A stretch of 64,000 bases of DNA from Flammula alnicola (Eukaryota > Basidiomycota > Agaricomycetes > Agaricales > Strophariaceae): contig JADNRV010000010.1 in assembly GCA_015499995.1 (NCBI GenBank), forward strand, positions 186,001 through 250,000, read 5' to 3'. Position numbers and translations under genes: made by a program. Shown here piece by piece: positions 10,053 to 61,367 of this stretch (position 1 is its first letter; every line of letters begins with the position of its first letter). The notes beneath the pieces are model-generated. The model was not told the DNA's origin. It did no database searches and saw only the letters and a list, made by a program, of their open reading frames with translations.

Positions 10053-10055
10053 TAT

Positions 10056-11784: not shown

Positions 11785-11787
11785 TAT

Positions 11788-12350: not shown

Positions 12351-12520
12351 GGTCATTGTGAGAACGTGATGGGTTTTCGCCGCGTTGTCAATTTCGTTGT
12401 GCCTGGCAGCCTCTAAGTTGTCTCTACCCCACCTCCAGAAACGGCGGCTCTCATGCCACTGGAAACTCTCTAGTTACTGTCGTTGGGCCTCGCTCATGCC
12501 TGGGAATTAGGACGGCGGTA

Positions 12521-13180: not shown

Positions 13181-13334
13181 TTGACTGTGATTGCTGCATC
13201 CTCAATTGTTGAGCAGGCTTTTACATTAGTTTATTGTATATATCATATAATTTACATTTTCTGTATGATGAAGTACTATTGACCTTTCACTTCCAACGAA
13301 AGGTGTCAAAGGAGAACTTACCGGAAGCTGTGTG

Positions 13335-25548: not shown

Positions 25549-28322
25549 CTAACGGCGCCCAAGCCTACTTGCCGGCGCATGAGGTTTACGACCATCCGGT
25601 CCCGCTGTTTTGTCCTTGGGATCCGGTGGCCTGGAATGCGTGCGACTGGGTTGACCCTGGAGGGTGGTGTGTCGTTCTCGTCTTTCTGATTCAAGTTGCC
25701 TTGTCAAATTTGCAGACTCTTCCTCCTTCTTTCTTAGGTCGTCCCGCAAGTTCGCACATTCCTCCTCGAGTCGACGCACTTCGGTTTTAAGCCTTTCATT
25801 ATCAACTTCCAAATCCCGCATCGTCATCCCTTCCGGTTCCTGTCCAGGGATGTCAGATGCCGAAGTAACCGCGATGGAAAGAGATTGACTTTCGGCCTTG
25901 GGTCTCGAAGGGTATCGGCGTTGGATCACAGGTATAGTGACAGTACCCCAAGTTGGCTTCACTTTTTTCTTCCACGTCATTTGATGGCGCCCTTCTTCGA
26001 ATGGCGTGTCCTGAGCTACATCCGAGAGGTCGACAGGTTTACTGAAGAGAAAGACTTTCATGAACCCGACATCGACATCTTGTCCTTCTCGTAGAAAGTA
26101 GGAGAACGGCGCGGCTCCTCCTGCACCATATCCAATGGTGAGACTTCCGCCATTCATGGGCAAAGGCGGCTCAGCGACATGGTTTGCAGCTCCTGGAAGT
26201 GGGTGTTGGTAATAAGATCCTATATGATGTTGACTCGATCAGCAGAATCTTTGGCAAATATTTCCCGAAGAGACATACCTATACTAAGATCGCTGTTATC
26301 GAAATAAAAAAGGCTCGGAAAGAAGTCGCGAGACTTGTTTATATTTATTAATTTGACGCCATACGGTTGGTCTTCTTCGACTACGAAATCGATTTCGTTG
26401 TCGACGCAGAGATTGTCTCCAACGGGAATCAAATCTTCTGAATCGTCCTCGCGTAGTTTGTAGAATTCTACCTGAATGTTGTTCGCAACTTCAGGGCTAT
26501 CGTTTGTGCGATTAAGGTGCCAGTAGTAGTGTGCCGCAGTCTTGAGTATGGGGCTTAGCCCCTCCAGCGTCGGATCGATGCCATCAATTTGGCGAGCGAA
26601 ATTATACCGCGTCAACTTCTGCTCCACGATGCGCAGCGTTACTTTTCCATTTAACATTTCGATGGAAATCTGTGCATCTTCCTCCTGATCAACGATTGTA
26701 ACATTCGGGAAATCGTGCCTTGTCTCTCGCACTAGCGAGATCAAAGATTGTTGGGGATCAGGGCGGATAAAGAGTCGAAGATCGGGTCGATGACCTGCGG
26801 TTGTTTGCACAGCAACACCAGGCCGAGGAAGAGAAAGAATGGGTGCATCAGGGAGCACCTTCATAGTAGCGGAGTAGGATTCCAGTTTAGTTGAATCAAC
26901 AACCAATACTCCCATCGAATTTTCACGAGCGACGTCCTCCTTCCTGGCGTAAATGGTAAACTCGGCGCCAATGTTGATTCCTTGAGCAGTGCCAGCCTCA
27001 AGAATAAAATTTCCCTGCTCGGATCGAACGGGAATGGGTGCACGCTGATGAGGAAGAACCATCTTGTTGAAGATGAAGCGGTTCTGATTCTCACCCTCGC
27101 ACTGAGGGTTTTGGCTGCGATAAACAGAAATATTTCGTATGTCAATAGGTCGCCCAGACCACAAGGGATTTGATGCTACTAACTTTGGGATAAGATCCAT
27201 GTCGTTCAAGATGTCGGAATATCTTAGTTTATCAGGTCCCGTCGTTCGAAGAAGGGTGAGAAAGGCAGTCGAAAAGCTGCCCCGACCGTTGGATTCTTTG
27301 GCGTACTCAGCGGAGCTGCATGCCGCGACGAGAACGTGTGAGTTTAGGCCGACATGAGCTGTGTCAGGAGCAGGTTTGGCGCCTCTCTCGTCTTCTTGCG
27401 AGGAATATATGTCCCCGTAGATGCTGCAGTCCAATTCTTCACTGCCAGACCGGATGAGGGACGACGACTCGTCTTCATCCCCCCTCGTCCCAGAGGCTGC
27501 GTGGCAACAATCGAATACAACAGTCTGAGATTGGAGTCAGGAAATCAACGAAAAACGTCGAAGAGCATTGAGAAATAACCCACGATGTTATCGCCCTTCT
27601 CCTTAGCAATTCCATTAAGCAACTTTCCCAGCTCACGATCGGTAATTCCAGTAATATTGCGTTTCGTTGAGTAATCGTGAGGTACCAACACTTGGATTTT
27701 GCGTCCGCCCGTGTCCCAGCCCTCCGGCGGTTTGATTTCACCTCCATGACCGGCGTAGAAAATGAAGATGGGATCCCCTCGTTGTATGCGGGGGTCGTTC
27801 TGGAGACTCTTGAAGCCACTAAGGATGGCAGAACGGGAGGCGCCTTTTTCAATCAGAAAGGTTATCTGGCTCCGAGGAACCTTGAGATCAACTTCGAGGT
27901 ATTGCTTGAATGATTCTGCGTCGGCAACACCGCCGCGAAGGTTCCTGAACTCGTCTGATTCGTATGTGTTGATGCCGATTATCAGCGCAAACAGACGCGA
28001 TTTTTCGGTACTGTGCTTGACGTTAGACGCTGCCACCCAACGGAAATCATGTGGAAGCAATGTACTGACGTCACCAGAAAACTTGTCCTTGAGTGCACAG
28101 GCGATGATGGAGGAATTGATTGATAATCAGGACTCCTGTAAGGTGACTGATACCCACTTTGTGCGTTTGGAGGCTAGTGATGGTCTAACGCTAAAGTGTC
28201 ATTTGAATGAGTTATAGTATCGCATAAATATTGCGAAGTGCGATTGCTCACCCTGAGGACGGCTTTACGGCGTTGGAGGAATTGCGACGAACTTCAGTCT
28301 TAGGCAAGAGGAATGAAGGCAT
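25549..28322 (-). CDS. Caspase-like protein with C-terminal coiled coil, gene C
   Basis: Exons 28252-28322, 28158-28190, 27584-28010, 26279-27524, 25549-26219 give 815 aa with all phases matching. The ATG at 28322 (MPSFLLPKTEVRRNSS) heads a small exon whose homologues are seen in the plus-strand array. The protease domain runs from about residue 41 to 300. His123 (FYAGHGGE) and Cys184 (FDCCHAASG) are intact. The NPQCEG block, the middle region and the beta-rich TIGYGAGG region follow, ending in TWGTVTIPVIQRR. The tail after that is different from the array genes: instead of a linker and kinase it has a heptad coiled coil (LKTEVRRLEEECANLRDDLR) and a Pro/Arg-rich end. A 69-nt in-frame segment before SQNPQCEG may be an intron (donor GTTAGT, acceptor TATCGCAG), since A, B, D and E have one exactly there. 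Confidence 0.85.
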
Positions 28323-30146: not shown

Positions 30147-32521
30147 TCAGACTAGCCTTCTACCTGGACTAGCCACCTGCCTGCGTCGGTGGCGTTTCCT
30201 CAGAGGGGGTCGGAAGGATTGGGGAATGGGCTCAGAGCTAGACGTGCACGCCGAAATCTCGTTCGACTTGGATAGTTCTCTTCGCTCCGACTACATAGAA
30301 TACCAATAAATGAGCAATGAAGTTTGAGTTCCCGTCAGTTAGAGGACGCTCACCGATTCAGGTGGATTTCGAATTGGTAATATAGACTGGGTTTTTTGTG
30401 GACGAGGGCTGGGTCGGCGACGCTGAATAACAGTGACGAGGCCTGTGTCCCAATGCTCCGTCGTCGTCGGCTGGAGACGAAAGGGAATGGTCGACCGCTT
30501 CACTGATGTCAGAGGCTCGGTATAGAGAAATAACTTGATGAAGTCGACTTGGATATCGTGGCCATCTCGCAGTCGGCTAGATAAAGGAGGCCAGCCTCCA
30601 GAACCGTACCCGATAGTCAGTGTTCCCCCGGCCTTCTTTAAAGGGACATCAAGGTCATATTTTCCACTCGAAGGAGGTTCGTAGAAAGCTTCTATTTCGA
30701 GGTAAGGCGTGGTACTGTCAAAACATAACGTGGAACTTACTCATGCTGAGATCGGAATTGTCGAAATAAAGGACGCGCGGGAATAAGTCGTAGTCACTGC
30801 GATTGATCAGCTTTATGCCATAAAAAGAGTTTTCTTGCGGCACAAAGTCAATGACACCGTCGACACATAAGTTATCGCCTACGGGCGACAACTCTGCCTG
30901 TTCAACATCCGGGAATTTTGACGGAAGGCCTTCTAATTTGTAGCATTCTACCGTGACGCTCTTTCTAATGCAATTGTGGGAAATATTGTTGGTGCGATTG
31001 AGTTGGCCATAGTAGTTCGTTGCCCTGTTAAGAAGCTGAGCGACCTGGGCCACGGTAGTAACACCGGCATCGATTTTACGAATGAGCCCGTACTTTGTCA
31101 CCCTTTTGTCTATGACGCGAACAGTAGCGGTGTTGTTTTCGATTGCAATGTTTAGGTGTGCATCTTCCGCATTATTGACCATGACTATCTTTTGAAATTC
31201 ATCCTTGGCAACATTTCGTAGCGAGCAGAGTAGAGGCCTTCCGTTGAACCTATCATCGCTGCGAATGTAGAGGCGAAAACACTTTCTGCTGCTAGCTTTG
31301 GTTTGGATAGCAACAGCATCCATCGTTACAGGGAAAGGAAAGTCGCCCTCGGGAACCTTCATGATGGCAGAGAAAGTCTTCAGCTGATCGACCTGTAGCC
31401 GGCCCAACGGCTTTCCAGAGATGGCATTTCTGCTCGGATAAACGGCGAATTCAGCTCCAGCGGTAAGATCGTGTGCGGACCCAGCATTCAGGGTATATGC
31501 GCATTGGCCGTCATTTCCAATTTCCTCGAATCGAGTAATGTAGTGAGTTGGTTGAGGCGGAGGGATTTCTGTGCTGAATAGGCGCCTGTTCTGGTTGATT
31601 CCTTCACATTGGGGATTCTGCCTGATAAAATATCTGATATCAATTATCGAAGAGTTTTAATATATGGATTTAGATGTCGCTTACCGTACATGTACCTTCA
31701 TATGTCGTGGGATTTCGGAATAGATCAAGTTGTCGCGTCCTTCTCGCTCCAAGAGCTCGAGGAAGGCAGCCGTGAAATGACCATGACCGCCAGATTCATA
31801 TGCACGTTCCCCGCGCCCACAAGCCGCAATGAGCACATGCGACTCCAGACCACCGTAGAACATATTCCCCCGTACAGGTCGATCACTGTCCCATGTGAGA
31901 CTATGTCGTAGCTCACAGGAACGGACTTGGATATCGGACCTACTGGCCACTTGGTCGGTATCCCCTCTCGTCCCGGATGCCGCATAACAGCAATCAAATA
32001 CAACTGTCTTCATTAATGTCGTAAGCTCATCGTTTTAAAAATAATTACACCCTGAAATTTCCACTCACTATGTTGTTACCCTTCTTATTTGCAATGCCTT
32101 CGAGAAATGCACCGATTGTACGATCAGGGATACATAACACCTTTTTTCCGAGTGTTGAATCCTCAGGACACCAGTCATACGGAACCAGCATCTGGATTTT
32201 GCTACGAACCCCACCCGACTCCCAGCCTGGAGGTGGCCGACATTCAGTTCCATGGCCAGCAAAGAAAATGAATATTGGATCGTCGTATCCAATACGACGG
32301 TCCTCTTCGAGGCGTTTGAGCGCATTAAGGATACTGTCTCGCGAGGCGCGCTCATTTAAGAGCATCTCAATTTGATTAGGTGGAACTTTGAGGTGGGTCT
32401 GCAAGTAGTTTGCCATTGCAAGCGCATCGGCAACAGCATACTTGAGTGGTGAAATGCATTTTTCGCGATAGGAATTTATGCCGATGATAAGAGCGAACAG
32501 GCGAGGTTTGGGTCTGGACAT
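30147..32521 (-). CDS. Caspase-like (peptidase C14) protein, gene D
   Basis: Exons 32069-32521, 31685-32007, 30741-31621, 30354-30691, 30147-30290 give 712 aa. The ATG at 32521 starts MSRPKPRLFALIIGINSY, directly on the first strand of the protease fold, with no N-terminal extension. Catalytic His90 (FFAGHGTE) and Cys158 (FDCCYAASGTRG) are present; the residue after Cys is Tyr, where relatives have His. The first intron ends in AAG, not a pyrimidine-AG, but the join matches all paralogues. The NPQCEG block, the middle region and the beta-rich LTIGYGSGG region follow. A last exon adds a Ser/Arg-rich tail (RPPLRKRHRRRQ) that the other genes lack and that could be a nuclear-localisation-like basic patch. 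Confidence 0.85.
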
Positions 32522-35289: not shown

Positions 35290-37573
35290 TCAACGACGGT
35301 TAATATAACTGCGCGTTGGCTCCTGAGCACGCCGAACACCCGTATTCATGCTTTGCCTGGTGAGAGAGCTTCGACGCTGAATGATTGGGATAAGGATAGT
35401 ATTCCAGGTTTCTTTCGACTTTGGGTACCACGTCTGGATCGTGCGATCCGAAGTAAAGGGTGAAAGCTGCGGTACGTGGGAGAGATTGACAGGCTGGGTG
35501 GACAAATATATCTTGAGGAATTCGATGTCGATATCCTGTCCCGCTTGCAGCTGGAACGAGAAGGGCTCATATCCCCCCGAACCGTACCCGATTGCAAATG
35601 TTCCGCCACACTGTCTTAGAGGAACGTCGACGACAGTGTGCCCGTCGGCACGTGTTTGAGCATAAGCGGCTAGGCAGCGTTAAAGAAAGTGCGTCAGTTC
35701 CGTAATCACCAAGTAGTGTGAGACCACATACCTATGCTCAGGTCGCTGTTACTGAAGTGAAACAAGTTGGGGTAGAGGTCGTGCCTCGTCTTGTTGGTCA
35801 ACTTGATACCATAGGGAGTGTCTTCCTCCACCACGAGGTCGACCATGCCGTTACGGCATAGGTTAGGCCCAGTGGGAGTCAGAACCATCCCTTGCAGCCC
35901 ACTATTGTCCAGTACGGTCAGAGTCTCCTCCAATCTATAGAGTTCCACGTCGATGCGGCCTGTAATTTCAGGATCACTGTTGGCACGGTTGAGTTCGCCA
36001 TAGTAATGTGCTATCCCCTTGAGGACCCAGGATAGGTTCCTCAAATCCGCGTCGATATCCTTAAACTGTCGAGTGAAGCCATATCGTGTTACGTTTTCAT
36101 CTGTGATTTTCAAGGTGATTTTGGAGCGTTGCAACGAAATTTGGACATGGCCATGATTCGGTTCACGGACGAGGGAAATGTTTTGGAAAATCGGGTCTTT
36201 TTCTAGTAAAGTGCGGAAGTGACGGAAAAAGGCGTCATTGGGCGCAATATAGAGACGTAAATCTTCCCTTTTCCCGACTTTTGTCTGGATCGCGATGGCA
36301 GGAGGAGTGAGAGAGAAATTGCGGGTGCCGGCTGGAACATTGGCAGTCGCAGAGAAAGGTCTCAAAGCATTGGCGATTAACGCCCCGATTTGTGTGGAGA
36401 GATTGAAGTCAGCTTTGCGATAGACAGCGAATTCGGAGCCTGTGTTGATTCCGTGTATCATTCCGCCATTAATAACATATTGGTCTCGACCCCCGATTTT
36501 TTCAATCCGAACATCGAAAGCCGTGCGTTCGGGAGGCAGGACCTTGGCATCGAAGAGCGCCCTATTTAGGGTAGCTCCTTCGCATTGTGGGTTCTGCCTG
36601 TAAGCATACAACAATTTTAATATGCATGAGCAATGGGTGAGAAGCAACCGAATCAAACTCACCCTGGAATGGCATCCAGGTGCGCCAGAATGTCAGAATA
36701 TCTCAATTTATTCAGCGAGACATTGCTAAAGAGTTTCAGGAGCGCTACGGAGAATTGGCCGTGACCCATGTATTCATTTGCTTTTTCCGTAATGCCGCAG
36801 GCGGCAAGGAGTACATGCGAACCTAGACCACCATGGTGAAATTTGGAAGGGATGTATGAACCTCTGGGACCGAAGTCCCATATATCTTGATCGAGGGTTT
36901 CTGGGTAAGGGCGAGAATCCAGTTCTACAGAGCGAGTTATCATATCGTCATCGCCACCTCTGGTACCGGATGCCGCATGACAGCAGTCAAAAACCACGGT
37001 CTGATACAAATTTAAGAGTTCTTGAATAAATGTGATAATAATATCAACACTCACGATGTTATCGCCCTTCTTTTCAGCGATTCTGGCGAGCAAAGCTCCG
37101 ATCGTACGATCTGGAATAGGTGGGATCCGTCGTGCTCGCTCAAGAGCGTCGCAGTCGCATGGAATGATGACTTGGATCTTTGTTCCTGGTCCTCCGCATT
37201 CCCAGCTTGGAGGTGGCAGAATTTCGCCTCCATGTCCTGCAAAATAAATGAAAATGGCATCTCCTTTCTTGATGCGGCGATCATCCTTGAGGTGTATAAA
37301 TTCCTCAATAATTGCCGAACGCGATGCTGCCTTGTCTAGAAGGACGCTGATCTGGTCGCTTGGAACATTGACGCGAGTCTCGAGATATGCCTTGAATGAG
37401 AGCGCATCTGGGACAGCCCCACGAAGAGGTCGGAACTCGGTCGAATGATATGAGTTTATACCTATAATGAGGGCAAAAAGAGGAGATCTGTGATTGATTT
37501 CCAGGTCAAATGTTATTGATAGACGTTTGCAAAAGAGAATAGCAACGCACCTGGTAGTACGCGGTCGAGACAT
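35290..37573 (-). CDS. Caspase-like (peptidase C14) protein, gene E
   Basis: Exons 37551-37573, 37055-37487, 36663-37000, 35732-36597, 35290-35669 give 679 aa. The ATG at 37573 starts MSRPRTTR, close to the start of gene D. The first intron is 63 nt and in frame, so the unspliced reading also looks open. Splicing gives a sequence that aligns directly with D. Catalytic His93 (YFAGHGGE) and Cys159 (FDCCHAASGTRG) are intact. The NPQCEG block is followed by the middle and beta-rich regions (FAIGYGSGG) and the ILIPIIQRR motif, then a short tail ending YINRR. This is the plainest member of the family, with neither coiled coil nor kinase. Confidence 0.87.
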
Positions 37574-46920: not shown

Positions 46921-47627
46921 GCACTGCATGCGAGGCCCTGCAGTCATTTCCTTCTCGGATCTCGGACTATCCATTCATTAACATAGTCAATCCTTCTCTG
47001 CTCTTGCGCAACCAAACCTCATTCCATTTCCCTTTCTTAAGACCTTGTTTCGCTTACCCTGGTGGTCTTGGCCCGGCCCACCACCATCTACGACTCACGA
47101 TTCACCATATATCTATATCAGTCCTTTGTTTCTTTTCTCGCTGTCAATCAATCAGTTAGTTTTTTGTTTTTGTTTGCATAGTACTGTATATAGCCGCGTC
47201 GGTTCCCATAATCAATCGATTTTTTTGTCATATATTTTCATATTTGAGTTGACTGGGGTCTTTGAAAGGACTTCCATCATATAGGATAACAGCACGAACA
47301 GCTAGAGGATCACTAATTATAGCCAAAAGACGTCTCCCACTTGAACTTCACTACTAATTCTTAACGACACGTGATGCACTGCTCATTTGCTTCAGAGTCA
47401 GTATTATAACACTGACGGAAGTTAACTTCTATTAGTATAACAGAAGCTTTCGTAATTATGCAACTATACATACTGGCTGCGAATACTCACTGCCTCGAGT
47501 GACAGGTTTGCGTTACCCAGAGACCGTTACCACCTGCCCTCAGATCTCAGAGTCCGCCCCGAGTCGCGCTCTCTTTCCGATCCCTTCTTCTGACCGCCAT
47601 TCCATATATTCCACACTCACCAGCTCT
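46921..47627. other. Intergenic, no gene recognised
   Basis: 3' flank of the acyl-CoA synthetase and upstream region of the Spa2-kinase chimera. T-rich tracts lie around 47100-47250. No coding similarity is seen. Confidence 0.4.
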
Positions 47628-49590
47628 ATGCCGAACCGCCAGCCTTCTCGTGCTCCTTTGCCTGCCATACCCGCCATCGATTATCGCCTGGTCGCGAAAA
47701 CACCTTACGCGGAGCTCGGGAGTTATCTAGCTAGTTACTTGGCCTCAGGTATGCATCGCGTGCTTCTTTCTTTTCCTTGCCTGACGGGCGTGTATTGTGG
47801 TGTTCCTCAAGTTCCTCTAAACCTTCGCTCAAACGCCAGATCGAAGCTGACGAGACTGATGGTTATTCAATTTTATGAGCTATCAACGGATGTGTGCGAT
47901 GAACTTGTTCGTCGAAGAGTTGAGGACATTGAAGGTTTGTCGCTTTCGACTGTAATATGACGGCCTCTCACTGTATTTCAGTTCCGTTTCTTCCGAACAG
48001 AGAGGAGTTCCATCCCAAACGGAATCAAGCGTGTGGAAAATTGGCAACGCTAGATCTTTCGAGCGACATTTATTTCGAGTTGGGAAGACGATATCCTGAG
48101 TTCAAGGATCTCCCAAGAAACTGCGATGAGAATTTTTCAGCTGCACTCGCATCTCGGCATAAACCCTCGCAATCATTCTATTCAGAGATCAGAGGACCGT
48201 GAGCGTAAATTTGGCCTACGACCGGGCCAAGCGCCCAGCACCACAAGCGATGACACTACCACTTGTACCTTCAGCTTCGGATGCCATACAGAGGCTCGGT
48301 CTTCCAGACCTCACAGATAGTATCGCTCTGGATCGCTCTACGTTCGATCCTATAGGTCGAGGAGCCTGTGTCCCCCTCGCAACACTCTCAGCACTCTCAG
48401 CAAGCGGGGTGACGAAGAAGGTTCTTTACAGATCACTTTCACGACCACATCTTATTAGCACTTATGTCGATATTTCAGGCAGGTTGCTGTCAAAGTTACT
48501 CGCGCTCACGTATATAGAGAAGAAAATAAATGGAAGATAGAGAAGGTATGTATTCTGACGTACCGAGGAGTGAGATTCATGGATAATAACATCTACGCAG
48601 CGACTGAAAAGGGAAATACGCATCTGGGCGCGTCTCCAGCACCACAACATTATTCCATCGTCAAACTTCGGATTTTTTTTTTTTGTGTTCATTAACGTCT
48701 ATTGAGGCAGAACTTCGGATCATATACCGCGATGGTATGCCCTTGGATGAGTGGAGCGGATCTTTACAGATACCTCAACACTAGAGGGTCTGGACTTAAC
48801 TTCGGACGTCGGTTACTAATTGTGAGTTTCGCGCTGCATGTAGCTATTTTTCTGAAAACTGAATGCGTCCATTATTACAGCTCTCAGATGTCGCAGAAGG
48901 ACTTGCCTACCGTGAGTACTGAAGACATTCCTGGGCTACCCAAACTTATCTTTAATGTCCTTCTAAAAAGTCCATTCAAGGCAGATAATTCATGGAGACC
49001 TTCCTACGGTATGTTGTTCGCTTATTCTCTACAGCAGACAATGTGACTTTTGCTTTTTTTTAAGGCCAACATCTTGATGCACGAAGGACGAGCCCACTTG
49101 CATGACTTCGGTCTTTCCAATATAAAGGCCGAAATTCGAAGTGAGTCGTTTATGACCTCCAAAGTAGGCGATGCTGCCAGAAGGACTGCACCATAACTTT
49201 TCCATTTTGACCCCGAAGACAGCCCCGAGTTAACAACAAATTGCGATATCTATTCATTTGGGAGCGTCGCGCTGCATGTAGCCGTCTATGCTTCTTCATA
49301 AACATCTTCTGAGCTGACCAAAGTCTATAGATAATCCCTGGAAGAATCCCGTATGAAGACATTACTCATGATTAACAGATTGTCACGCGGGTGACTAAGT
49401 CTGGGGCAAGCGGTCCTCCCAGACCGTCAGAGCCTCTGTTGACTAACGAGTGTTGGGAATTTATCTTGTGTTGCCTAACACGAAACCATCTAGCCCGTCC
49501 GCATGTTAATTGGATCTGGCAGTCTCTTAAAATTCTGCGTTCAGCATCGTCTACGGAGGATAGTAGGCAATCTGACATTTGATCTTGAAA
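47628..49590 (+). pseudogene. Spa2-homology domain joined to kinase, K2
   Basis: Exons 47628-47748, 47812-47934 and 47982 onward encode MPNRQPSRAPLPAIPAIDYR, SNARSKLTRLMVIQFYELST DVCDELVRR and then VPFLPNREEFHPKRNQACGK LATL with YFELGRRYPEF. These are the two repeats of the GIT/Spa2 homology domain found in the polarisome scaffold Spa2. After about 48110 the frame changes, and from about 48295 the array linker (LPDLTDS) and kinase follow: VAVKVTRAHVY (48483-48545), CPWMSGADLYRYL, IIHGDLPT, HLHDFGLSN. Damage: the glycine loop is altered (IGRGACV), the PLLG segment is lost, a 37-nt insertion splits an exon at 48674, RWAAPE reads RRTAP followed by TAA (49194-49196), and the C-lobe is frameshifted. 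So it is a chimeric, dead copy. Confidence 0.8.
48664..48720. other. Small poly-T insertion with 10-bp target duplication
   Basis: AACTTCGGAT occurs at 48664-48673 and again at 48711-48720, enclosing 37 nt that start with a run of T and end GAGGCAG. Undamaged kinase copies have this word once (AACTTTGGAT). Seen from the minus strand, the insert ends in poly-A, the pattern left by target-primed retrotransposition of a very short RNA piece. Confidence 0.75.
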
Positions 49591-50124
49591 ACTTAAGCTC
49601 GCCCATGTACTGACAGGATCATCGCTCAATACCACACTGAGTATTTACATACAAAGCTACCGAAACACGCCAGACGTGATAACCTGCCATTAAGGTGCTT
49701 GAATGAGTGTAGTGTTGTAGTATAGAGTGTCGACTGAGAGTCTCTGCTGAGCGCTGAGCGGTCATCTCAATGAACCCTTGGGATAGACGACATTATTTAA
49801 TCGCGGGATCGGCCGCGATTCCAAGAGCTTTCGAGAATCGTTCAACTGGAGAAATCCGTTCATGGTGGTTTCATGTCAGTTTAAGTTAGAGAACACAGGC
49901 CTGGACAAGAACAGCACAGTTATGCATTCCGAAGTGCCTAGAATCGTGAACACTGGCGGGCGTCAATCAGATAACGGGCCGGGTTCGGCAATGCTACATG
50001 CACGCACGTGCACGTGTTTTTCCATCAGTTCTTCTCATCCCCCCAGTTCTGAGGCTGAGTTCATCGGACTCGCACGATGGGTAAATTGATTATGCCATCG
50101 TGGTTGTTGCTAATTGCCTCCAAG
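49591..50124. repeat. Junction of unit K2 3' flank and unit F 5' module
   Basis: About 49640-49700 matches the 3' flanks after units F and G (TACAAAGCTACCGAA). From about 49960 the shared 5' module begins (GGGCGTCAATCAGATAACGG). This tail-to-head join shows that K2 and F are neighbours in a tandem array. Confidence 0.7.
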
Positions 50125-52202
50125 ATGTCTAAGGCTCTTCAAAAGACCTCCACCGAGAAGCTGTCTCCAGGGTGAGCTATCACATTTCGCATTGATGAGT
50201 TACCCCACTCAAATGATACTGATTAGTGCAAGACCATCATCAGCCTTTAAAAGCCCAAGAGTATTGACATCTACTGTATACGCAAGGACGAGATCAGTGG
50301 TGCCGTTAGTACATTGCAGATGATGTCTATGGGTGATACCGTCTAATGTCACGTACAGCACCGAACAGTCGCGTCTTTTTGCTCTCATCATCGGCATCAA
50401 CACATATGAGTCGGATGAGTTCAGGAACCTTCGCGGTGGTGTTGCCGATGCAGAATCATTCAAGCAATACCTCGAAGTTGATCTCAAGGTTCCTCGGAGC
50501 CAGATAACCTTTCTGACTGAAAAAGACACCTCCCGCTCCGCCATCCTTAGTGGCTTCAAGAGTCTCCAGAATGACTCTCGCATACAACGAGGGGATCCCA
50601 TCTTCATTTTCTATGCCTCTAGAGGGGGAAGATATTGATATTGGGTTCATGAAAATCTTCCTCGTCAGCCAGCCTGTCGATCTCTCGGATGTAGCTCAAG
50701 AAGCGCCATTCGAATCGTTTCACCGTCAAACGATGTGGAAGAAACCAGTCGAGCCAATCTGGGGTACTGTCACTATACCTTTGATCCAACGCCGATACCC
50801 CTTGACCCGACAAAGACCTGCAGTGGATCCGAATACTCTTGCTATCGCACCACGCCGAGAAGGTCTTCCACCTTCTTCAAACTTTGATCTTCCAGACCTC
50901 ACGGATAGTGTCGCACTGGACGGTTCTAGGTTCGATCCTATCGGCCGAGGAGGGTATGCTGATGTTCACCTCGCAACATTCTCAGCAAGCGGGGTAACGG
51001 AGAAGGTTCTGTACCTATCCCTTTCATGCCTGTAAATTATAACTTACGTTTTCATTCCCATAGGTCGCTATCAAGGTTATTCGTTCGCACGTGTATTCAG
51101 AAGAGAGTAAGTGGAAGATAGAGAAGGTATGCATTCTGAATTACTGGCAAATGAGATTTGAGGCCGTCGCTCATGTAGTTTGCCCAGCGATTAAAGCGAG
51201 AAATATACATCTGGGCTAGTCTTCGGCATCCCAACGTTGTTCCGTTATTAGGCACTGTGTCAAACTTTGGATCATATACCGCGATGGTATGCCCTTGAAT
51301 GAGTGAAGGGGATCTTTGCCGATACCTTGACGAAAGAAAAACTGAGCTTAACTTTGGACGCCGACTGCAAATTGTGAGTTTCCCGCATGCGTTGCATTTA
51401 GCTATTTCTCTCGACATTGATTGTGTCAACTCGTGCAGCTGTCAGAAGTCGCGGAAGGACTTGCATACCGTGAGTACTGAGGATATTCCTTGTCTGCTCA
51501 AATATTTTTTAAATTTCCTTTAAAAAGTCCATTCAGCGCGGATCATTCACGGGGACCTTACTACAGTATGTTATCAGCCGCCTGTTTTCTATGCCAGACA
51601 GCGTGACTGTTCTCCTTTCAGGCCAACATCCTGATGCACGAAGGACGAGCCCACTTGCATGACTTTGGTCTTTCCAATACGAAGGCTGAAACTCGCAATA
51701 GCTCATTTATGATCTCCAAAGTAGGAGGTGCCGTGAGATGGGCTGCACCCGAGCTTTTTCCCTTTGACGAGGACACCCCCGAATTGGCAATGCATTGCGA
51801 CATCTATTCATTTGGAGCCGTCGCGTTGCATGTAGGTTTCTGCGCTCGCCCATAAATGTCTTCTGAGCTGACCAAAGCCTATAGGTAATCTCTGGAAGAA
51901 TCCTGTATGAAGACTTGTCCGACTTCCAGATTCTCATGCAGTTAACTCGACCTGAGTCCAGGGCGAGCGGCCCTCCCAGACCCCCAGAGCCACTGTTGAC
52001 CGATGAGTGTTGGGGTTTTATCTGTTGTTGCTTGACGCGAGACTATCTTGCCCGTCCGGATGTCAATGAGCTCCGGAAGTTGCTCAAAATGCTGCGTTCT
52101 GGATCAAGCACCGAGGCATTGGCGGCCAACGTATCATTTGATCGTGATGAAAGCTCACACTCACCCGTTGACGAGTTCAACCATACCGAAATGCCTAGAT
52201 AA
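50125..52202 (+). pseudogene. Caspase-kinase chimera with internal deletion, unit F
   Basis: Exon 1 from ATG 50125 (MSKALQKTSTEKLSPG, to 50171). The protease start lies at 50359 onward (LFALIIGINTYESDEF). At about 50610 the sequence jumps from FYA, just before the catalytic His, to the beta-rich region (DIDIGFMK), with a frame change and a TGA at 50636-50638. Roughly 1.5 kb present in C and G is missing, including both catalytic residues. The beta region then runs into a linker (LPDLTDSVALDGS) and kinase: IGRGGYADVH, VAIK (51064-51126), IIHGDLTT, HLHDFGLSN, WAAPELF and a full C-lobe ending at 52202. Kinase exons: 51064-51126, 51188-51373, 51439-51469, 51528-51565, 51622-51831, 51885-52202. 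TGA at 51296-51298 replaces the Trp of CPWMSG. The donor after the second small exon is also lost. Clearly dead, but it keeps the full kinase exon series. Confidence 0.85.
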
Positions 52203-52540
52203 AGTAGCACACATATTGTTTAAATACAAAGCTACCGAACCACGCGAGAGGTGGTCACCTCCAATTAAAACGGCTAAATTACGGTACTTATTATCTGAAA
52301 AACTGTGGTGTTGCTGAGAATGTCGACTAAGAGTCTAGGATAAGGCTTATAGGATATAGCAGACTCGGACGCGCGGAGTGGCCATCTAGGCTTGATCAGG
52401 TAAACAACACATGTACAAAAATCCGTTCATGATGGTAAGATAAACAGGGCGATATTTTAAGTTAAGAGCACAGGCCTGGCAAAAGAAAAATATTATTACT
52501 GCATGCCGCAGTGAGCGGCGACCTGATGCAGACAGGGATG
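52203..52540. repeat. 3' flank of unit F, repeated after unit G
   Basis: Colinear with about 57569-57890: AGTAGCACACATATTGTTTA, ATACAAAGCTACCGAA, GGCTTGATCAGGTAAACAA and TACTGCATGCCGC in the same order. Non-coding. Confidence 0.8.
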
Positions 52541-53640
52541 AAGGGATGGTCTTGTGGCCTGCTCCGCCAGGTGCGAGCGAGGACCTCGCGACGAACTATG
52601 GTATGGGAATGGGCATGCTTGATTCGCTGATGGTCCGCTCAACGCTTTGAATTCTCTCGGCGGCAGTGGCGGCGGTGTCGGGCCTGTTCCGGGTGTTGTG
52701 GGGAGCGTTGCGGGATTGCAGCCACAGCAGCAGCAGCAGCATTTGCACAGCGCGTTGGATGAGTTTGTCCAGCCGACGAGTTTTGCATCGAATGCGAGTG
52801 GCGTGTCTGGAAGGATTAGCCTTGGGTGGCGCGAGTCGTCGCTTGGAGGTATTCAGAAGCCGTTGCCACTGGCCAAGCAATTCCACGTCCTTGCAGTCCT
52901 CTTCTTGGAACCAGTCGCTGTAGTCTTCTACATCCCAACTACGAACACAGCCACAAGAAGTAATACAGCCGCCAGGCAGCTACATTGCAAAAATGTCGTC
53001 GTTTTCGACACTGTCTTTCGGCTGTGCAGGTCGGGGGGTGAGACGGATACGAGCTTGGTGGGCCTGGAGAGCTTAGAAGGAGGTGGTGCGAGAGGCGTGT
53101 ATGAGCGGGCAAAGGAAGATGCGACGCACGAGAGGGAGAGGAGACGGTACAGAGAGGGAGAGGAGGCGGGACAGAGATAGGCTGTCGGGTTAGCAAGAGT
53201 GGGAGAGGGAGATGAACCTAGTGCGCTTGCGTGCGACGAACCCTACGGCCGTTGGTACATTCCATGGAGTCGATGGTGGGATGTCTTCAGGTAGTGGTGT
53301 CATTGGTATTGGTGGCGGGGTTGGTACGGGGTGAATACGAGTGCGACGCCGACATAGAGCTCGAGCACCCCTTCCGGTTTGGTGTTGGTGCCAGCGCGAG
53401 CGAAGCAATGCGTCGTGAGCATCGCCCACTACTGCTGCTTTAGAGGATCAGCGTGCCACTGCCAATGGGTCTTCTGCAGCGGGATCTGTGGACATTTCAA
53501 CGTTGGCCGGGGCAGAAGCTCAAGCTCATGATCAGCAACAACGAGAGGAGCAGGAGTCAGATCTTCATCCAGAGACAATTGCGACCGGAGGACGGAAGTC
53601 TCCGATGCGCCGTGTCGTCCAGAGAAAGTCGGAATTTAGA
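52541..53640 (+). other. Unassigned coding-like fragment between units F and G
   Basis: Three open stretches (52647-53180, 53231-53443, 53488-53796) carry low-complexity protein: Gly-rich, then LQPQQQQQHLHSALDEFVQP, then AHDQQQREEQESDLHPETI. Frames change between them, and no ATG or splice series joins them convincingly. GC content is higher than in the array around it. It could be remains of an unrelated gene (glutamine-rich, perhaps regulatory) inserted between two array units. I do not recognise it. Confidence 0.3.
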
Positions 53641-53769
53641 CCTGTGACCGGTGACCACCCCGCCTCGGAATTCCTATCCGAGTTCATCGCCATTCTGTAT
53701 CAGCCGCATATCCCCAATCGATGGCTAGGATTAATTATACCGTCGTGGTTGTTGCGTGCTCATTGCCCT

Positions 53770-56700
53770 CAGGGTGTCTTTGTTCCTCGTGGCTAAGACT
53801 GAAGTTCGTCGCAATTCCTCCAACGCCGTAAAGCCGTCCTCGGGGTGAGCAATCGCATTTCGCAATAGTTATGGGATACTATGACTCATTCAAATGATAC
53901 TTCAGCATTAGACCATCTCCAGCCTCCGAATGCACAAGGTAAGTATCAGCCACCATACCAAACTCATGATTATCGATTTCTCCATCATCCACTGTACATT
54001 CAAGGATGAGTTCTGTGACGCCGTTAGTACATTGCAGATGATGTCTATGAGTGACAGCATCTAATATCGCATACAGCACCGAACAATTGCATCTTTTTGC
54101 TCTCATCATCGGCATCAACACATACGAGTCGGACGAGTTCAGGAACCTTCGCGGTGGTGTTGCCGATGCAGAATCATTCAAGCAATACCTCGAAGTTGAT
54201 CTCAAGGTTCCTCGGAGCCAAATAACCTTTCTGATTGAAAGAGGCGCCTCCCGCTCCGCCATCCTTAGTGGCTTCAAGAATCTCCAGAATGACTCCCGCA
54301 TACAACGAGGGGATCCCATCTTCGTTTTCTATGCTGGTTACGGAGGAGAACTCAAACCGCCACAGGGCTGGGACACGGGCGGACGCAAAATCCAAGTGTT
54401 GGTACCTCACGATTACTCGACCAAACGCAAAATTCCTGGTATCACCGATCGCGAAGTGAGAAAGTTGCTCGATGAAATTTCTAAGGAGAAGGGTGATAAC
54501 ATCGTGGGTTTTCCTCCATTCCCGTCGATATGGTTCTTTGATTTCCTTACTCCGATCTTAGACTGTTGTATTCAATTGTTGCCACGCAGCATCTGGGAGG
54601 AGGGTAGATGAAGACGAGTCACCATCCCTCGTCCGATCTGTTGCAGCAGAGTTGGACTGGAGCACCTATTCTGACATTTTTGAAGGAGAGGAGAGAGCTG
54701 CACAATTTTCTCCTGAGACAGCTCATATTGGTCTAAACTCACATGTTCTCGTCACGGCGTGCAGCTTGACCGAGTACGCCAAAGAATCCAATGGTCGGGG
54801 AAACTTTTCGACTGCCTTTCTCACCCTTCTTCGAACGACGGGACCTGATAAACTAAGATATCGCGATATCTCGAAACACCTGGATCTTATCTCAAAGTCG
54901 GTAACATCAAATCCCTTGTGGTCTGGGCGACCTATTGACATACAAAATATTTCTGTTTATCGCAGCCAAAACCCTCAGTGCGAGGGTGTGAATCAGAACC
55001 GCTTCATCTTCAACAAGATGGTTCTTCCTCATCAGCGTGCACCCATTTCCGTTCGATCCGAGCAGGGAAATTTTATTCTTGAGGCTGGCACTGCTCAAGG
55101 AATCAACATTGGTGCCGAGTTTACCATTTACGCCAGCAAAGAGGACGTCGCTCGTGAAAATCTGATGGGAGTATTGGTTGTTGATGCAAAATACCTGGAA
55201 TCCTACTCCGCTACTATGAAGGTGCCCCCTGGCGCGCCAAATATTTTTCTTCCTCAGCCTGGTGTTGCTGTGCAAACACAGGCAGGTCATCGACCCGATC
55301 TTCGACTCTTTATCCGCCCTGATCCCCAACAATCTTTGATCTCGCTAGTGCGAGAGACAAGGCACGATTTCCCGAATGTCACCATCGTTGAAAAGGAGGA
55401 AGATGCACAGATTTCCATCGAAATGTTAAATGGAAAAGTAACGCTGCGCATCGTGGAGCAGAAGTTGACGCGGTATAATTTCGCTCGTCAAATTGATGGC
55501 ATCGATCCGACGCTGGAGGGGCTAAGCCCCATACTCAAGACTGCGGCGCACTACTACTGGCAGCTTAATCGCACAAACGATAGCCCTGAAGTTATGAACA
55601 GCATTCAGGTGAAATTCTATAAACTACGCGAGGACGAAGTTTCAGAAGATCTGATTCCCGTTGGAGACAATCTCTGCGTCGACAACGAGATCGATTTCAT
55701 AGTCGAAGAAGACCAACCGTACGGCGTCAAATTAATAAATACAAACAAATCTCGCGATTTCTTTCCGAGCCTTTTTTGTTTCGATTGCAGCGACCTTAGT
55801 ATAGGTATGTCTCTTCGGGAAAATATTTGCCAAAAGATTCTGCTGATCGAGTCAACGTCATATAGGATCTTATTACCAACACCCACTTCCAGGAGCTGCA
55901 AACCACATCGCCGAGCCCCCTTTGCCTATGAATGGCGGAAGTCTCACTATTGGATATGGTGCAGGAGGAGCCGCGCCGTTCTCCTACTTTCTACGAGAAG
56001 GACAAGATGTCGATGTCGGGTTCATGAAAGTCTTTCTCTTCAGTAAACCTGTCGATCTCTCGGATGTAGTTCAGGACACGCCATTCGAGGAAGGACGCCA
56101 TCAAACAACGCGGAAGAAAACATTGAAGCCGACTTGGGGTACTGTCACTATACCTGTGATCCAACGCCGCTATCCCTTGACCCGACAACGATCTGCGGTG
56201 GATCCGAATACTCTTGCTATTGTACCACGCCGAGAAGGTCTTCCACCTTCCCCAAACTTTGGTCTTCCAGACCTCACAGGTAGTGTCGCTCTGGACGGTT
56301 CTAGGTCCTATCCTATCGGCGTAGGAGGATATGCTAATGTTCACCTCGCAACACTGTCAGCAAGCGGGGGACGGAGAAGGTTCTGTACCTATCCCTTTCA
56401 CGCCTGTAAATTATGACTTACGTTGTCATTCCCATAGGTCGCTATCAAGGTTATTCGTCCGCACGTGTATTCAAAAAAGGATAGGTGGAAGATAGAGAAG
56501 GTATGGATTCTGAATTACTGGCAAATGAGATTTGAGGTCGTCGCTAATGTGGTTTGCCCAGCGATTAAAGCGAGAAATATACATCTGGGCTGGTCTTCGG
56601 CATCCCAACGTTGTTCCGTTACTAGGCACTATGTCAAACTTTGGATCATATACCGCGATGGTATGCCCTTGGATGAGTGGAGGGGATCTTTGCCGATACC

Positions 56701-57365
56701 TTGACGAAAGGAAAGCTGAGCTTAACTTTGGACGCCGACTGCAAATTGTGAGTTTCCGCATGCGTTGCATTTAGCTATTTCTCTCAACATTGATTGTGTC
56801 AACTCGGACAGCTGTCAGAAGTCGTGGAAGGACTTGCATACCGTGAGTATTGAGGATATTCCTTGTCTGCTCAAATATGTTTTTAACTTCCTTTAAAAAG
56901 TCCATTCAGCGCGGATCATTCACGGGGACCTTACTACAGTATGTTATCAGCCGCCTGTTTTCTATGCCAGACAGCGTGACTGTTCTCCTTTCAGGCCAAC
57001 ATCCTGACGCACGAAGGACGAGCCCACTTGCATGACTTTGGTCTTTCCAATACGAAGGCTGAAACTCGCAATAGCTCATTTATGACCTCCAAAGTAGGAG
57101 GTGCTGTGAGATGGGCTGCACCCGAGCTTTTTCCCTTTGACGAGGACACCACCCCCGAGTTGGCAATGCATTGCGACATCTATTCATTTGGAGCCGTCGC
57201 ATTACATGTAGGTTTTTGCGCTCGTCCATAAATGTCTTCTGAGCTGACCAAAGCCTATAGGTAATCTCTGGAAGAATCCCGTATGAAAACTTGCAAGACT
57301 TCCAAATTTTCATGCGGTTAATTCGGCCTGGGTCCGGCCCTCCCGACCACCAGAGCCACTGTTGA
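53770..57365 (+). pseudogene. Caspase-kinase fusion with altered protease site, unit G
   Basis: The most complete copy of the fusion. Exons: first exon to 53844, 53906-53938, 54077-54503, 54562-55804, 55866-56379, then kinase exons 56438-56500, 56562-56747, 56812-56842, 56901-56938, 56995-57207, 57261-57365. The protease part is open throughout and about as long as in C, but FYAGHGGE reads FYAGYGGE (catalytic His to Tyr) and FDCCH reads FNCCH (Asp to Asn). The second Cys remains. The NPQCEG block, middle and beta regions, IQRRYP, linker and kinase follow (IGVGGYANVH, VAIK, CPWMSG, HGDLTTANIL, DFG, APE). Damage: the first exon has no ATG in frame, one base is missing before 56379 (frame lost into the kinase), and one base is missing near 57348, giving a TGA at 57363. 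So it is a recently dead gene or a pseudo-enzyme with a few late lesions. Confidence 0.85.
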
Positions 57366-57924
57366 CCGATGAGTGTTGGGATTTTATCTGTTGTTGCTTG
57401 ACGCGAGACTATCTTTCCCGTCCGGATGTCAATGAGGTCCGGAAGTTGCTCAAAACGCTGCGTTCTGGATCAAGCACCGAGGCATTGGCGGCCAACGTGT
57501 CATTTGATCGTGATGAAAGCTCACACTCACCCGTTGACGAGTTCAACCATACCGAAATGCCTAGATAAAGTAGCACACATATTGTTTAAATACAAAGCTA
57601 CCGAATCACGCGAGAGGTAAACACCTCCAATTAAAATGGCTAAATTACTATCTGAAAAACGGTAGTGTTGTTGAGAATGTCGACTAGAGTCTAGGATGCT
57701 AAGACATATAGGATATAGCAGACACGGATGCGGCTGAGCAGTCCTCTAGGCTTGATCAGGTAAACAAACAGAAACCCGTTCATGATGGTAAGATAAGACT
57801 GGGCGATGTATTTATCAAATTTAAGTTAAGAACACAGGCCCGGCAAAAGAACAACACATTTACTGCATGCCGCGTTGAGCGGCGACCTGCTAATGCCATG
57901 TGTGTCATTGTGTACCTCACGGGC
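57366..57924. repeat. 3' flank of unit G
   Basis: The kinase-tail homology continues out of frame to 57568 (FNHTEMPR end as in F), then the shared 3' flank follows to about 57890. Non-coding. Confidence 0.75.
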
Positions 57925-58435
57925 GTCAATTGCAATCAGATAACGGGCCGGTTGCAATTGCTCCAGGACCGGCCACACTGGTGACTGATTTTCATTTACT
58001 TTTCCGTTACTTGCTCCTTCCCGAGTTCATCAAACAATCGTCAAGCGTCTGTATCGGCCACAAGGAGGCCGTATGTCCCCATTGAATCGATCCAACTTCT
58101 CGTGCCGTCAGCACATCACACGATAGGCATAAATGATTATCGATTAAACCTGGCCGGTTGTTGGGTGGTCTCTACTTGGACTCTTTCGTCGCCTTTCAAG
58201 TTCTTTCAACGCCGTGCAACCGCCTTCAGGGTGAGTATTCACATTTCATACTATGGGATAGTATAACCCACCCAAGTGATACATCAGCATTAGATCATCA
58301 CTGGACTCCAAACTCCTAAGGTAGGTATCATGGCTTTTTCTGGACAGGGCCTAACTTGACATACAAAATGTTTCTGTCTGTTGCAGCCACGATCTTCAGA
58401 GCGAGGGTGTGAATCAGAACCGATTCCTTTTCGAC
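57925..58435 (+). pseudogene. Truncated caspase-unit stub H
   Basis: It begins with the shared 5' module (GGGCGTCAATTGCAATCAGA). The first-exon remnant RRLSSSFNAVQPPSG ends with donor GTGAGT at 58231, and a second small exon lies near 58287-58320 with donor GTAGGT. The sequence then jumps to the NPQCEG exon (GAGCGAGGGTGTGAATCAGA, near 58396) and stops at about 58435. The protease domain is deleted. The stub ends 30 nt before the ATG of the HET gene. Confidence 0.75.
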
Positions 58436-58465
58436 AGCGCGTCCGATATCTAATCCCACATTGAG

Positions 58466-60448
58466 ATGGCCGACGAGGAGAACAGCACCAACATATCAGT
58501 TGAACCGCACGTTTTGTGCACCAGATGCTCAGAATTTGTCCACAACTTTCAAAGGAATCATATCCTCAACTCCGACGATGGTAAATCTGCACGTTTCACC
58601 TATCGCGCTCCCGGCCGCGAAGTCCAAGAATCCGGATTGCGAGGATGCCATTTCTGTTCCACCATCTCGCAGGGATTATGTCCAGCCCACTCTGATCGTG
58701 ACCTCCTCGAAAGCCGGGATTGGTTCATCACTATCGGGCGCGTTCAATCTGTTTCCAGAAGCTCCAGCCCGAAGTTCACCGCTGACATGCTGTTGAAGGA
58801 TCCCGATGGCAAGGTGATCAAGCGGCATTCGATGTGGATCGTTTCTAACCTCAAGATAACGCATCCGCCTGTTTCTTCATGGGCCTGGAGTGTCTCGACA
58901 AGTTCGGATGCGACTTTCAAATTGGCTCAAGAATGGCTTGATCAGTGCCTAGCCAACCATAAAATCTGCGAAGAAGTGAGAATGAAGCCTTCGTCGCGCA
59001 ACGGACAGAGGTTTCCATCCTACCTGGTGGACGTTGGGTCAGCCATGCCCCGCCTCTGCCACTTTAAGGACCGACCTGAACATCCCGATTACTTGACGCT
59101 GAGCCACCGCTGGGGCGGCAGCCATATCTTCCAGCTCACGACGAAAAACGTCCCTCCCTACTCTCCGAAATCCCCCTGACAGAATTACCAAAGACATTCC
59201 GCGACGCCATCATGATTACGCGACGTTTGGGATACCGGTTTCTCTGGATCGATTCTCTGTGCATCATGCAGGACTCCAAGGAGCACTGGCAAACGAATCC
59301 TCAATCATGGGGGATATATACCGAGGTTCGGTCTTCACCATCGCAGCGCTAGGAGCCACCGACGGTGATAGCGGTTGCTTTAAAAGCCGGAATCCACTCG
59401 GCTTTCAGTATTGCAAGCTCGGGTTGAAGTTGGAAAATCAGAACTGTGCCTGGAGCCGCAGGAAGAGGGAAAGCAATTCACGAAAACAGGGTATGGAAAG
59501 TCAGTTGAACCACTTCACGAGCGCGCATGGGTGATGCAAGAACGGATGCTCTCTCCCCGAACGCTGTACTACGGCACGCTCGGATTATACTGGGAATGTG
59601 TCGCCGAGGCAGCAACTCACACTGCATCTAAAGCGCAGACCGCCCCCCAACTCCGAAATACGTCATTAACCAGATGTCCACTCTGCCCGTTAGTGGCTCC
59701 ATCGATGACAGCTATCGGGAATTCCACAAGTGGTGGGAGAGGACCGTGGAGCTGTACTGTTCTTGCGGGCTGACATACGGCAGCGACAAGCTGGTAGCCA
59801 TAGCTGGAATCATCAAGCTCGTGGAACACCAGACCGGGTTGCACAATGTTGCAGGCCTTTGGAAGGAGTCTGCTCTCCTCGAGCTTCTCTGGATGATCGA
59901 AAAGCCGACCGAGCGTCCCACAGGCTCTTATCAAGGACCCACTGGTCATGGACCTCTCTCAACACCCCTACAATTGCCGGAATCCAGGACTTTAACTATG
60001 AGTTCGACTGGAAGGCGGAGGTGCTGGAGATGGTGGCGCATGAAGTCGCTGCGAATGGGCAGATTTCTGGTGCGCATCTGAGGATGCGTGCGCCATGCAG
60101 CTTGTACGCTGGGAGAAGAACGTTGACGGCGACAACTACAAGCTACGGTGGGGAACGGAGACACCAGTGGAGAACAGCGCCAATGACAGGATAATGTTCC
60201 AGCCCGATATTAACCTCGAGCACGACATAGAATCCGAACAGGAGTTATGGGCGCTCCTCATTGTGCATTGTACGGCTGCTACGTCGTGGATGAAGATGGG
60301 ATTGGTGGTGACTAGGAAGCAAGGAGGTGTGGAAGGGGAAGGGCATTGGATTAGGGTTGGGTCGTTTCGGCAGTATGACTGGCCATCTTGCACAACGACG
60401 TTCTTTGAGGATGGCGGGGAGGAGACAAGGGTGTTGGTGATTGTCTAG
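58466..60448 (+). pseudogene. HET-domain (heterokaryon incompatibility) gene, frameshifted
   Basis: The HET domain acts in fungal incompatibility and cell death. The ATG at 58466 opens 237 codons with two CxxC-like pairs (LCTRCSEF, GCHFCSTI), then YLTLSHRWGG, HET block 1. A one-base shift before 59162 leads to FRDAIMITRRLGYRFLWIDS LCIMQDS (block 2) in another frame. A second shift near 59293 leads to ESSIMGDIYRGSVFTIAALG. Further on ERAWVMQERMLSPRTLYYG (block 3) is in a third frame, followed by VAGLWKESALLELLW and a SWTSLNTPT region. At least four frame changes are needed to read through, so it is decayed unless the assembly has errors here. The last frame ends at a TAG at 60446-60448. Confidence 0.82.
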
Positions 60449-61367
60449 TTGAGCATTTGCCTGAGTTTCAGTGTTTGCAAGCCGCTACATGGTGATGTGC
60501 TCGAGAACTCAGTACTCTCGGTAGTGTTGCGTATAAATCTCCAGAGGGAGCATGTAACCAATATTAGTGCCGTTTGCAGAACATAAGGCGCGGACGATTT
60601 CCGCCAAAATTTTGATGAGAAATCCAGCAGGCTGACAGCTGGCACAGTATTCGTGCAGTAGCGTTGGAGAGGGCCGAGTGGAAGCTGAGCTAGTCGCTGG
60701 CTCGGACGATGCAAGAGGAATGCGATTGAGAGCAACAATCAACTGCCACTGCCAGTGCGAACACGGGTGTTTATCTACGGAAGGTCATGTGATCGTTCTG
60801 GACGGTTGGGGGGCGGGCGCCTCGGCAAAGCCGCCTATGTAGTCAATTTCGCTCCGAGTGTCATGTATCTAGCACCGTTAGAATGGCAGTAAAATTCTGC
60901 ATCGAATGATATATCCTTTGTTGTAAATTGAGGATCGTTTCGGTACCTCTTCCACCACGAGGATCGCGGCCCGGCGGAAAGAAGGGAGTTGAATTTTTCG
61001 GTTCTGTAAATGGGTACACAATGATATGGATCAGGATATATTGATAGCCTGCGAGCTACCAGCTGCAGTGTATCGAGGGGTGCTTAAGATTGAGGAGAAT
61101 CTGAAAATCAGAGGGAAGGAGAAACGCCTCTATACAAGCCTCGGGAATAACTCTAAGTAACGACAGGAACCGACGAGTAAGTAGTTGCCGAAAGATCGTG
61201 AGTACAATTAATTACATCGTCACGTACTTATGTAGTCCACTGTATAACTGTCAAAGCTCGAGCAGGTACGCAAGTAAATAACGCGCTAATAGTCTTTTAG
61301 AATAATTCATAACAAACCGAGTTCGCAAAGGACCGCAAAATCCTTTCCTTCACCCCGCCCCGCTTAA
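60449..61367. other. Intergenic, no gene recognised
   Basis: Lies between the HET gene and the GH79 gene, both of which end into it. Only short frames without domains. Confidence 0.45.

What the first reader, a model, noticed from the sequence alone, without database searches (positions are those of the whole stretch)
53770..57365. Caspase-like protease and TKL-like kinase in one gene
Seen: in unit G, protease, NPQCEG block, beta region, linker and kinase follow each other in one exon series, and unit F keeps the same join from the beta region on. Intact relatives A-E have the protease and beta region but no kinase, so the kinase was added once and then copied. Known: caspase-like proteases and kinases both act in cell-death signalling, but I know of no well-described single protein with this order. 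Inference: the ancestor coupled a protease effector to a kinase switch or sensor.
Basis: partly seen in the sequence, partly recalled or inferred. Interest (0 to 1): 0.85.

Follow-up and report, generated by a model that had tools for sequence, protein, structure and literature searches.

The report
Broken caspase-kinase chimera in a mushroom
In a wood-decay mushroom, a caspase-like protease gene lost its usual tail and became joined in frame to a protein-kinase gene; the chimera was duplicated once, but both copies are now broken, so it looks like a failed gene fusion rather than a working two-enzyme protein.

Summary
The join is real; a working two-enzyme gene is not shown. Unit G has a caspase-like domain, a beta region and, in the same exon, the N-terminal piece and glycine loop of a basidiomycete TKL-type kinase (56264-56379); unit F carries the same join. 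The "LPDLTDS linker" is the kinase's own N-terminus.

Both copies are broken. F has TGA in the kinase (51296) and lacks most of the protease. NCBI models G as a 729-residue protein plus a separate kinase fragment. G's protease has lost its catalytic His (GHG to GYG).

Of 113 caspase-like proteins fetched, only G carries kinase sequence; 7 of the 10 others in its clade end in long coiled-coil-like tails. F-G kinase exons show no significant purifying selection (dN/dS 0.69, p 0.16), though adding the beta end gives 0.53, p 0.005.

Best reading: a lineage-specific chimera, duplicated, then decayed. Fungal protease/kinase-like fusions are already reported (PMC12881547).

The parts
54079..54503 (+). 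G, caspase-like domain, first main exon (large-subunit part); catalytic-His position at the GYG motif 54336-54344 is Tyr
   Evidence: PF00656; alignment with C and C90, which have His; Tyr94 faces His of yeast metacaspase Yca1; coordinates
54562..54969 (+). G, rest of caspase domain; VVFNCC at 54565-54582 keeps the catalytic Cys but has Asn for Asp two residues before it
   Evidence: NCBI's model removes a further short intron just before NPQCEG
54970..55804 (+). G, NPQCEG block and first part of beta region
   Evidence: a homologue of this region folds as strands plus two longer helices, the first ~80 residues resembling the FlgT C-terminal domain weakly
55865..56178 (+). G, end of beta region (to ...TIPVIQRRYP), last part homologous to C and its C90 copy
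56179..56201 (+). Breakpoint interval of the chimera: DNA homology to the caspase gene C ends at 56178 (56182 for the C90 copy); homology to the 5' end of solo kinase K90 starts at 56201
   Evidence: (local alignment score 43, best of 300 shuffles 28)
56264..56379 (+). G, kinase N-terminal segment (LPDLTG) and glycine loop (GVGGYANV 56318-56341), same exon and frame as the beta region; the end of this exon is one base shorter than in F, K48 and K90
56438..57568 (+). G, remaining kinase exons (about 56438-56500, 56562-56747, 56812-56842, 56901-56938, 56995-57207, 57261-57568), out of frame with the upstream exon; second frame break within 57324-57348
   Evidence: NCBI fragment P0192
50333..50629 (+). 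F, 5' part of caspase domain; the stretch equivalent to G 54335-55995 is missing and the frame is broken there
50621..52202 (+). F, end of beta region, same join (LPDLTD at 50889-50906) and kinase; in-frame TGA at 51296
   Evidence: NCBI model P0191 starts directly after this TGA
48301..49558 (+). K48, solo kinase without protease, degraded; NCBI model P0205 is 181 residues
39919..40686 (+). K40, 3' remnant of a solo kinase; its counterpart on the other haplotype (C90:3783-5177, K90) has a changed splice donor and a frame break
25600..28322 (-). C, closest relative in the window: caspase with His and Asp present, then a coiled-coil-like tail and no kinase

Best explanation
F and G are two tandem copies of one chimeric gene. 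A C-like caspase gene (caspase domain, beta region, coiled-coil tail) lost its tail and became joined in frame, within about 56179-56201, to a TKL-type kinase gene just upstream of that gene's own N-terminal DLTG segment. The chimera was then duplicated. Since then F has lost most of its protease and gained a stop codon in the kinase, and G has gained two frame breaks in the kinase and active-site substitutions in the protease. Today G can make at most a caspase-like protein of about 729 residues that probably cannot cut, with a stub of the kinase N-lobe. Shown: the join, its sharing by F and G, the lesions, the coiled-coil tails of the nearest relatives. Inferred: order of events, loss of catalysis, and that the ancestral chimera once coded for both domains.
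For: Same in-frame join in F and G, 90% identical over 1923 columns. Breakpoint interval bounded by caspase homology on one side and K90 homology on the other. Frame breaks and TGA private to each copy; the proposed splice reaches a stop and P0001 ends there. NCBI splits G into P0001 and P0192 and starts F's model after the TGA. F-G kinase exons: dN/dS 0.69 over 270 codons, p 0.16 against neutrality; exon mismatches 101 of 1218, intron 16 of 354, 3' flank 34 of 311 (exon limits approximate by a few bases). Tree of 111 family members: G with P0002 and P0003 (support 1.0) within a clade of 11 (0.936), of whose 10 other members 7 have tails of 110-134 residues that read as coiled coils. Only 1 of 113 caspase-like proteins fetched, G itself, matches the kinase. 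Five of five kinase copies at this locus, K90 included, carry lesions or truncation.
Against: The frame from caspase to glycine loop has stayed open in G. G deviates at 6 of 104 conserved columns, within the range of its relatives, 0-15. G against C gives dN/dS of 0.16 (first caspase exon) and 0.46 (beta), so that part is or was constrained. Adding the beta end to the F-G comparison gives 0.53 with p 0.005, and join plus kinase 0.59 with p 0.075. Formally, 41 GT/GC-AG introns could bypass the first frame break, though not the second. Single-base lesions could be assembly errors; no reads were available.
Confidence: 0.72

Rival explanations
1. G is a maintained pseudo-caspase: the decayed kinase is irrelevant, and the open 729-residue product acts as a catalytically dead partner or decoy of the active paralogues, as inactive caspase homologues do elsewhere (c-FLIP, recalled).
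For: Frame open to 56493 with few deviations at conserved sites; the only three G-private changes at columns conserved at 85% or more are H94Y, A141S and D153N, two of them in the active site. The same His-to-Tyr change occurs in 5 other family members (three Armillaria, Galerina, Rhizoctonia) of 113; Fitch count 8 changes for 9 non-His tips, one of them a distant sequence with poor alignment.
Against: No expression data; one site on each of two motifs is also what decay gives; several nodes around the non-His tips have low support.
Confidence: 0.15
2. One reading: a working caspase-kinase protein, made in some cells by alternative splicing or present intact in other strains.
For: In-frame join in both copies; catalytic motifs VAIK, HGD and DFG are still readable in the kinase exons of G; 41 formal introns bypass the first break.
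Against: Two breaks in G, TGA and a 1.66-kb loss in F; catalytic His missing; no intact orthologue in the listed hits; NCBI models split.
Confidence: 0.07
3. Assembly or sequencing errors broke a gene that is intact in the organism.
For: Two of the three lesions are single bases, in one haplotype only; the other haplotype's counterpart of F/G is not in the assembly.
Against: F's TGA is a substitution; F's deletion is 1.66 kb; the solo kinases are broken as well; His-to-Tyr needs two base changes relative to C.
Confidence: 0.04
4. Two neighbouring genes that merely abut, never one reading frame (as the NCBI models suggest).
For: NCBI models P0001 and P0192 are separate.
Against: P0001 itself reads through the join into the kinase glycine loop; no stop and no intron between beta region and glycine loop in F or G.
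Confidence: 0.02

Closest known systems
Agaricomycete caspase-like (Peptidase C14) proteins with a beta region, e.g. P0004 (Flammula), P0005 (Galerina)
   Same: Caspase domain plus beta region with NPQCEG and a ...TIPVIQRR end
   Different: Others end there (67 of 101 with tails of 16 residues or less) or carry a coiled coil, H-type lectin or other tail; only G has kinase sequence, and it lacks the catalytic His
Basidiomycete TKL-type kinases (P0193 Galerina, P0195 Psilocybe; a related hit, P0046, is named TKL-ccin)
   Same: DLTG segment, glycine loop, VAIK, HGD, DFG, PF07714
   Different: Stand-alone and intact, 54% identical; the F/G copies are joined to a caspase and broken
Fungal protease sensors fused to kinase-like domains in gasdermin pathways (PMC12881547, section 20 read)
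   Same: A protease domain fused to a kinase-like domain in fungi
   Different: S8 or CHAT proteases, not this C14 family with a beta region; a gasdermin gene near G was not looked for
Metacaspases (yeast Yca1 4f6o, Arabidopsis metacaspases 4 and 9) and GSU0716 (3bij)
   Different: They have no beta region or kinase; G's catalytic His is Tyr

Membership tests
Peptidase C14 (caspase/metacaspase-like) | Homologous caspase domain | tested here: met
   PF00656, 57.9 bits vs cut-off 21.4; fold
Peptidase C14 (caspase/metacaspase-like) | Catalytic Cys | tested here: met
   Cys in G; 106 of 113 family members
Peptidase C14 (caspase/metacaspase-like) | Catalytic His (needed for an active protease) | tested here: not met
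   Tyr in G; His in 41 of 42 rows of A1 and in 101 of 113
Basidiomycete TKL-type protein kinase | Kinase homology with DLTG segment, glycine loop, VAIK Lys, HGD Asp, DFG | tested here: met
   Exon by exon; group name from hit titles only, no kinase tree was made
Basidiomycete TKL-type protein kinase | One uninterrupted reading frame over the kinase domain | tested here: not met
   G: two frame breaks; F: TGA at 51296
   Not in this assembly; 1 of 113 caspase-like proteins fetched has any kinase match, and that is G's stub. Searches reach only relatives sharing 5-residue words
   No RNA data here
Protease-kinase sensors of fungal gasdermins | Gasdermin gene next to the protease gene | not tested
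   No search was made for a gasdermin
Protease-kinase sensors of fungal gasdermins | S8 or CHAT protease domain | tested here: not met
   The only Pfam match of P0001 up to E 1 is PF00656

The most novel reading that the evidence does not exclude
A functional caspase-like-to-kinase chimera existed in the ancestor of F and G, and may persist intact in other Flammula strains or on the unassembled haplotype; G now survives as a pseudo-caspase that regulates its active tandem paralogues, one of several members of this family in which the catalytic His became Tyr.
Probability: 0.12. Interest if true: 0.6.

Novelty: new variant of a known kind. Interest (0 to 1): 0.3.

Why it matters
It shows a caspase-like gene family in mushrooms exchanging the module behind a constant protease and beta core (nothing, coiled coil, H-type lectin, here a kinase), and how such a join can decay within one locus. 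If an intact copy is found, it would be a single protein with a cell-death-type protease and a kinase. As it stands, it mainly warns against reading a fused gene from exon-by-exon homology without checking the frame.

Full report
Where it is. The window is G000:C2:186001-250000 of a 74.4-Mb assembly in 861 contigs. Contig lengths of C2, C90 and C58 equal those of Flammula alnicola proteins (555,988, 490,114 and 129,893), and P0001, the NCBI protein of unit G, matches G at 97%. So the organism is Flammula alnicola, an agaric.\n\nThe locus. Five caspase units lie on the - strand (A 1599-3774, B 20620-22768, C 25870-28036, D 30369-32500, E 35353-37480), then on the + strand a kinase remnant K40, a solo kinase K48, and F and G; a small caspase-gene remnant lies at 58355-58648. 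C90:1-19401 is the other haplotype of window 20202-47195, 86-93% identical in the main blocks.\n\nThe join. G runs from caspase through NPQCEG and the beta region, and in one open frame into the kinase glycine loop. DNA homology to C ends at 56178 and to the C90 copy at 56182. Homology to the 5' end of solo kinase K90 begins at 56201: local score 43, against a best of 28 in 300 shuffles. In that alignment an ATG of K90 that could be its start (inference; K90 has no NCBI model among the hits) faces ACT in G, so the kinase seems to have been taken over from just upstream of its start. F has the same join; it is like G but without the stretch equivalent to 54335-55995.\n\nPolarity. Of 113 caspase-like proteins among the 310 fetched, the end of the beta region was found in 101; 67 of these have 16 residues or fewer after it, 16 have 17-60, and 18 have more than 60. 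In the clade of 11 that holds G (support 0.936; 111 sequences, 624 columns, FastTree) the other 10 have: 7 tails of 110-134 residues that read as coiled coils; C, whose NCBI model has a tail of 20 but whose DNA continues in frame into the same coiled coil; P0006 with 46; and P0159 with none. Pfam matches of three of these tails (P0002, P0004, P0005) are to coiled-coil families below cut-off, and a fourth, P0141, has none, so 'coiled coil' rests mainly on reading. The kinase tail is the derived state.\n\nThe lesions. G: the exon before the 56379/56438 splice is one base shorter than in F, K48 and K90, so the splice leads to TAG at 56493-56495; P0001 ends with these residues. A second break lies within 57324-57348, and the stop at 57363-57365 follows from it. 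F: TGA at 51296; P0191 starts at the ATG directly after it. NCBI therefore has G as P0001 and P0192 and F as P0191. K48, K40 and K90 are damaged as well.\n\nThe protease. The catalytic His is Tyr in G and the Asp two residues before the catalytic Cys is Asn; C keeps both. His is present in 41 of 42 rows of A1 and in 101 of 113 family members; 6 have Tyr, 1 Asp, 1 Leu, 1 Gly and 3 a gap. The position faces the catalytic-region His of Yca1. At columns conserved to 85% or more (101), three changes are private to G: H94Y, A141S, D153N.\n\nSelection. F against G: kinase 270 codons, dN/dS 0.69, p 0.16; with join 335 codons, 0.59, p 0.075; with beta end 389 codons, 0.53, p 0.005. G against C: first caspase exon 0.16, beta 0.46, end of beta 0.20; G against C90: 0.23, 0.72, 0.19. 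dS differs between segments (0.06 to 0.33), so gene conversion is likely and these values are rough. F-G exons differ at 101 of 1218 positions, introns at 16 of 354, 3' flank at 34 of 311. The composite part thus shows little constraint since duplication; the caspase part of G shows more, shared with the branch to C.\n\nHow it most likely works. I think it does not work as a two-enzyme protein. If G is expressed, its product is a caspase-like protein without catalytic His and with a disordered kinase stub (the last residues have low confidence). Whether it serves as a pseudo-caspase is open (0.15).\n\nWhat is known. Fungal protease domains fused to kinase-like domains are stated in a review on gasdermin pathways (PMC12881547, section 20). 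Expanded TKL-type kinases in Laccaria (PMC2838846, passages) and in Agaricomycetes a kinase lineage in which 16 of 241 members have extra domains and some are truncated after duplication (PMC3937382, passages) are also in print. I found no listing of a C14 caspase with a kinase in eight searches.\n\nVerdict. Real join, copied once, decayed; ordinary as evolution, of some interest as a tail exchange in a caspase-like family. Interest 0.3.

Noticed in passing
P0001 (G), P0051, P0155, P0160 (Armillaria), P0180 (Galerina), P0172 (Rhizoctonia): Catalytic His replaced by Tyr (GHG to GYG) in 6 of 113 caspase-like family members; Fitch count 8 changes for 9 non-His tips on a tree with weak nodes. Possible recurrent pseudo-caspases.
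   Followed up: partly
P0009, P0010 (Dentipellis), P0034, P0040 (Rhizoctonia), P0148 (Sphaerobolus): The same caspase plus beta core carries other tails, three H-type lectin matches in P0009, and an unnamed domain in the last three. The position behind the beta region looks like an exchange site.
   Followed up: partly
window 47195-61013; C90 start; C793:8960-12416: Haplotypes differ: F, G, K48 and the HET-like gene at 58454-60448 (name by recall) have no counterpart in the assembled second haplotype.
   Followed up: partly
window 943-13267: Missing from the continuous C90 alignment (C90:20002-26252 matches 19521-13268, then C90:26425-27362 matches 942-3), a haplotype difference of about 12 kb around unit A.
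   Followed up: no
window 58355-58648: Small remnant of a caspase gene (NPQCEG region) downstream of G.
   Followed up: no
[not shown]
   Followed up: partly
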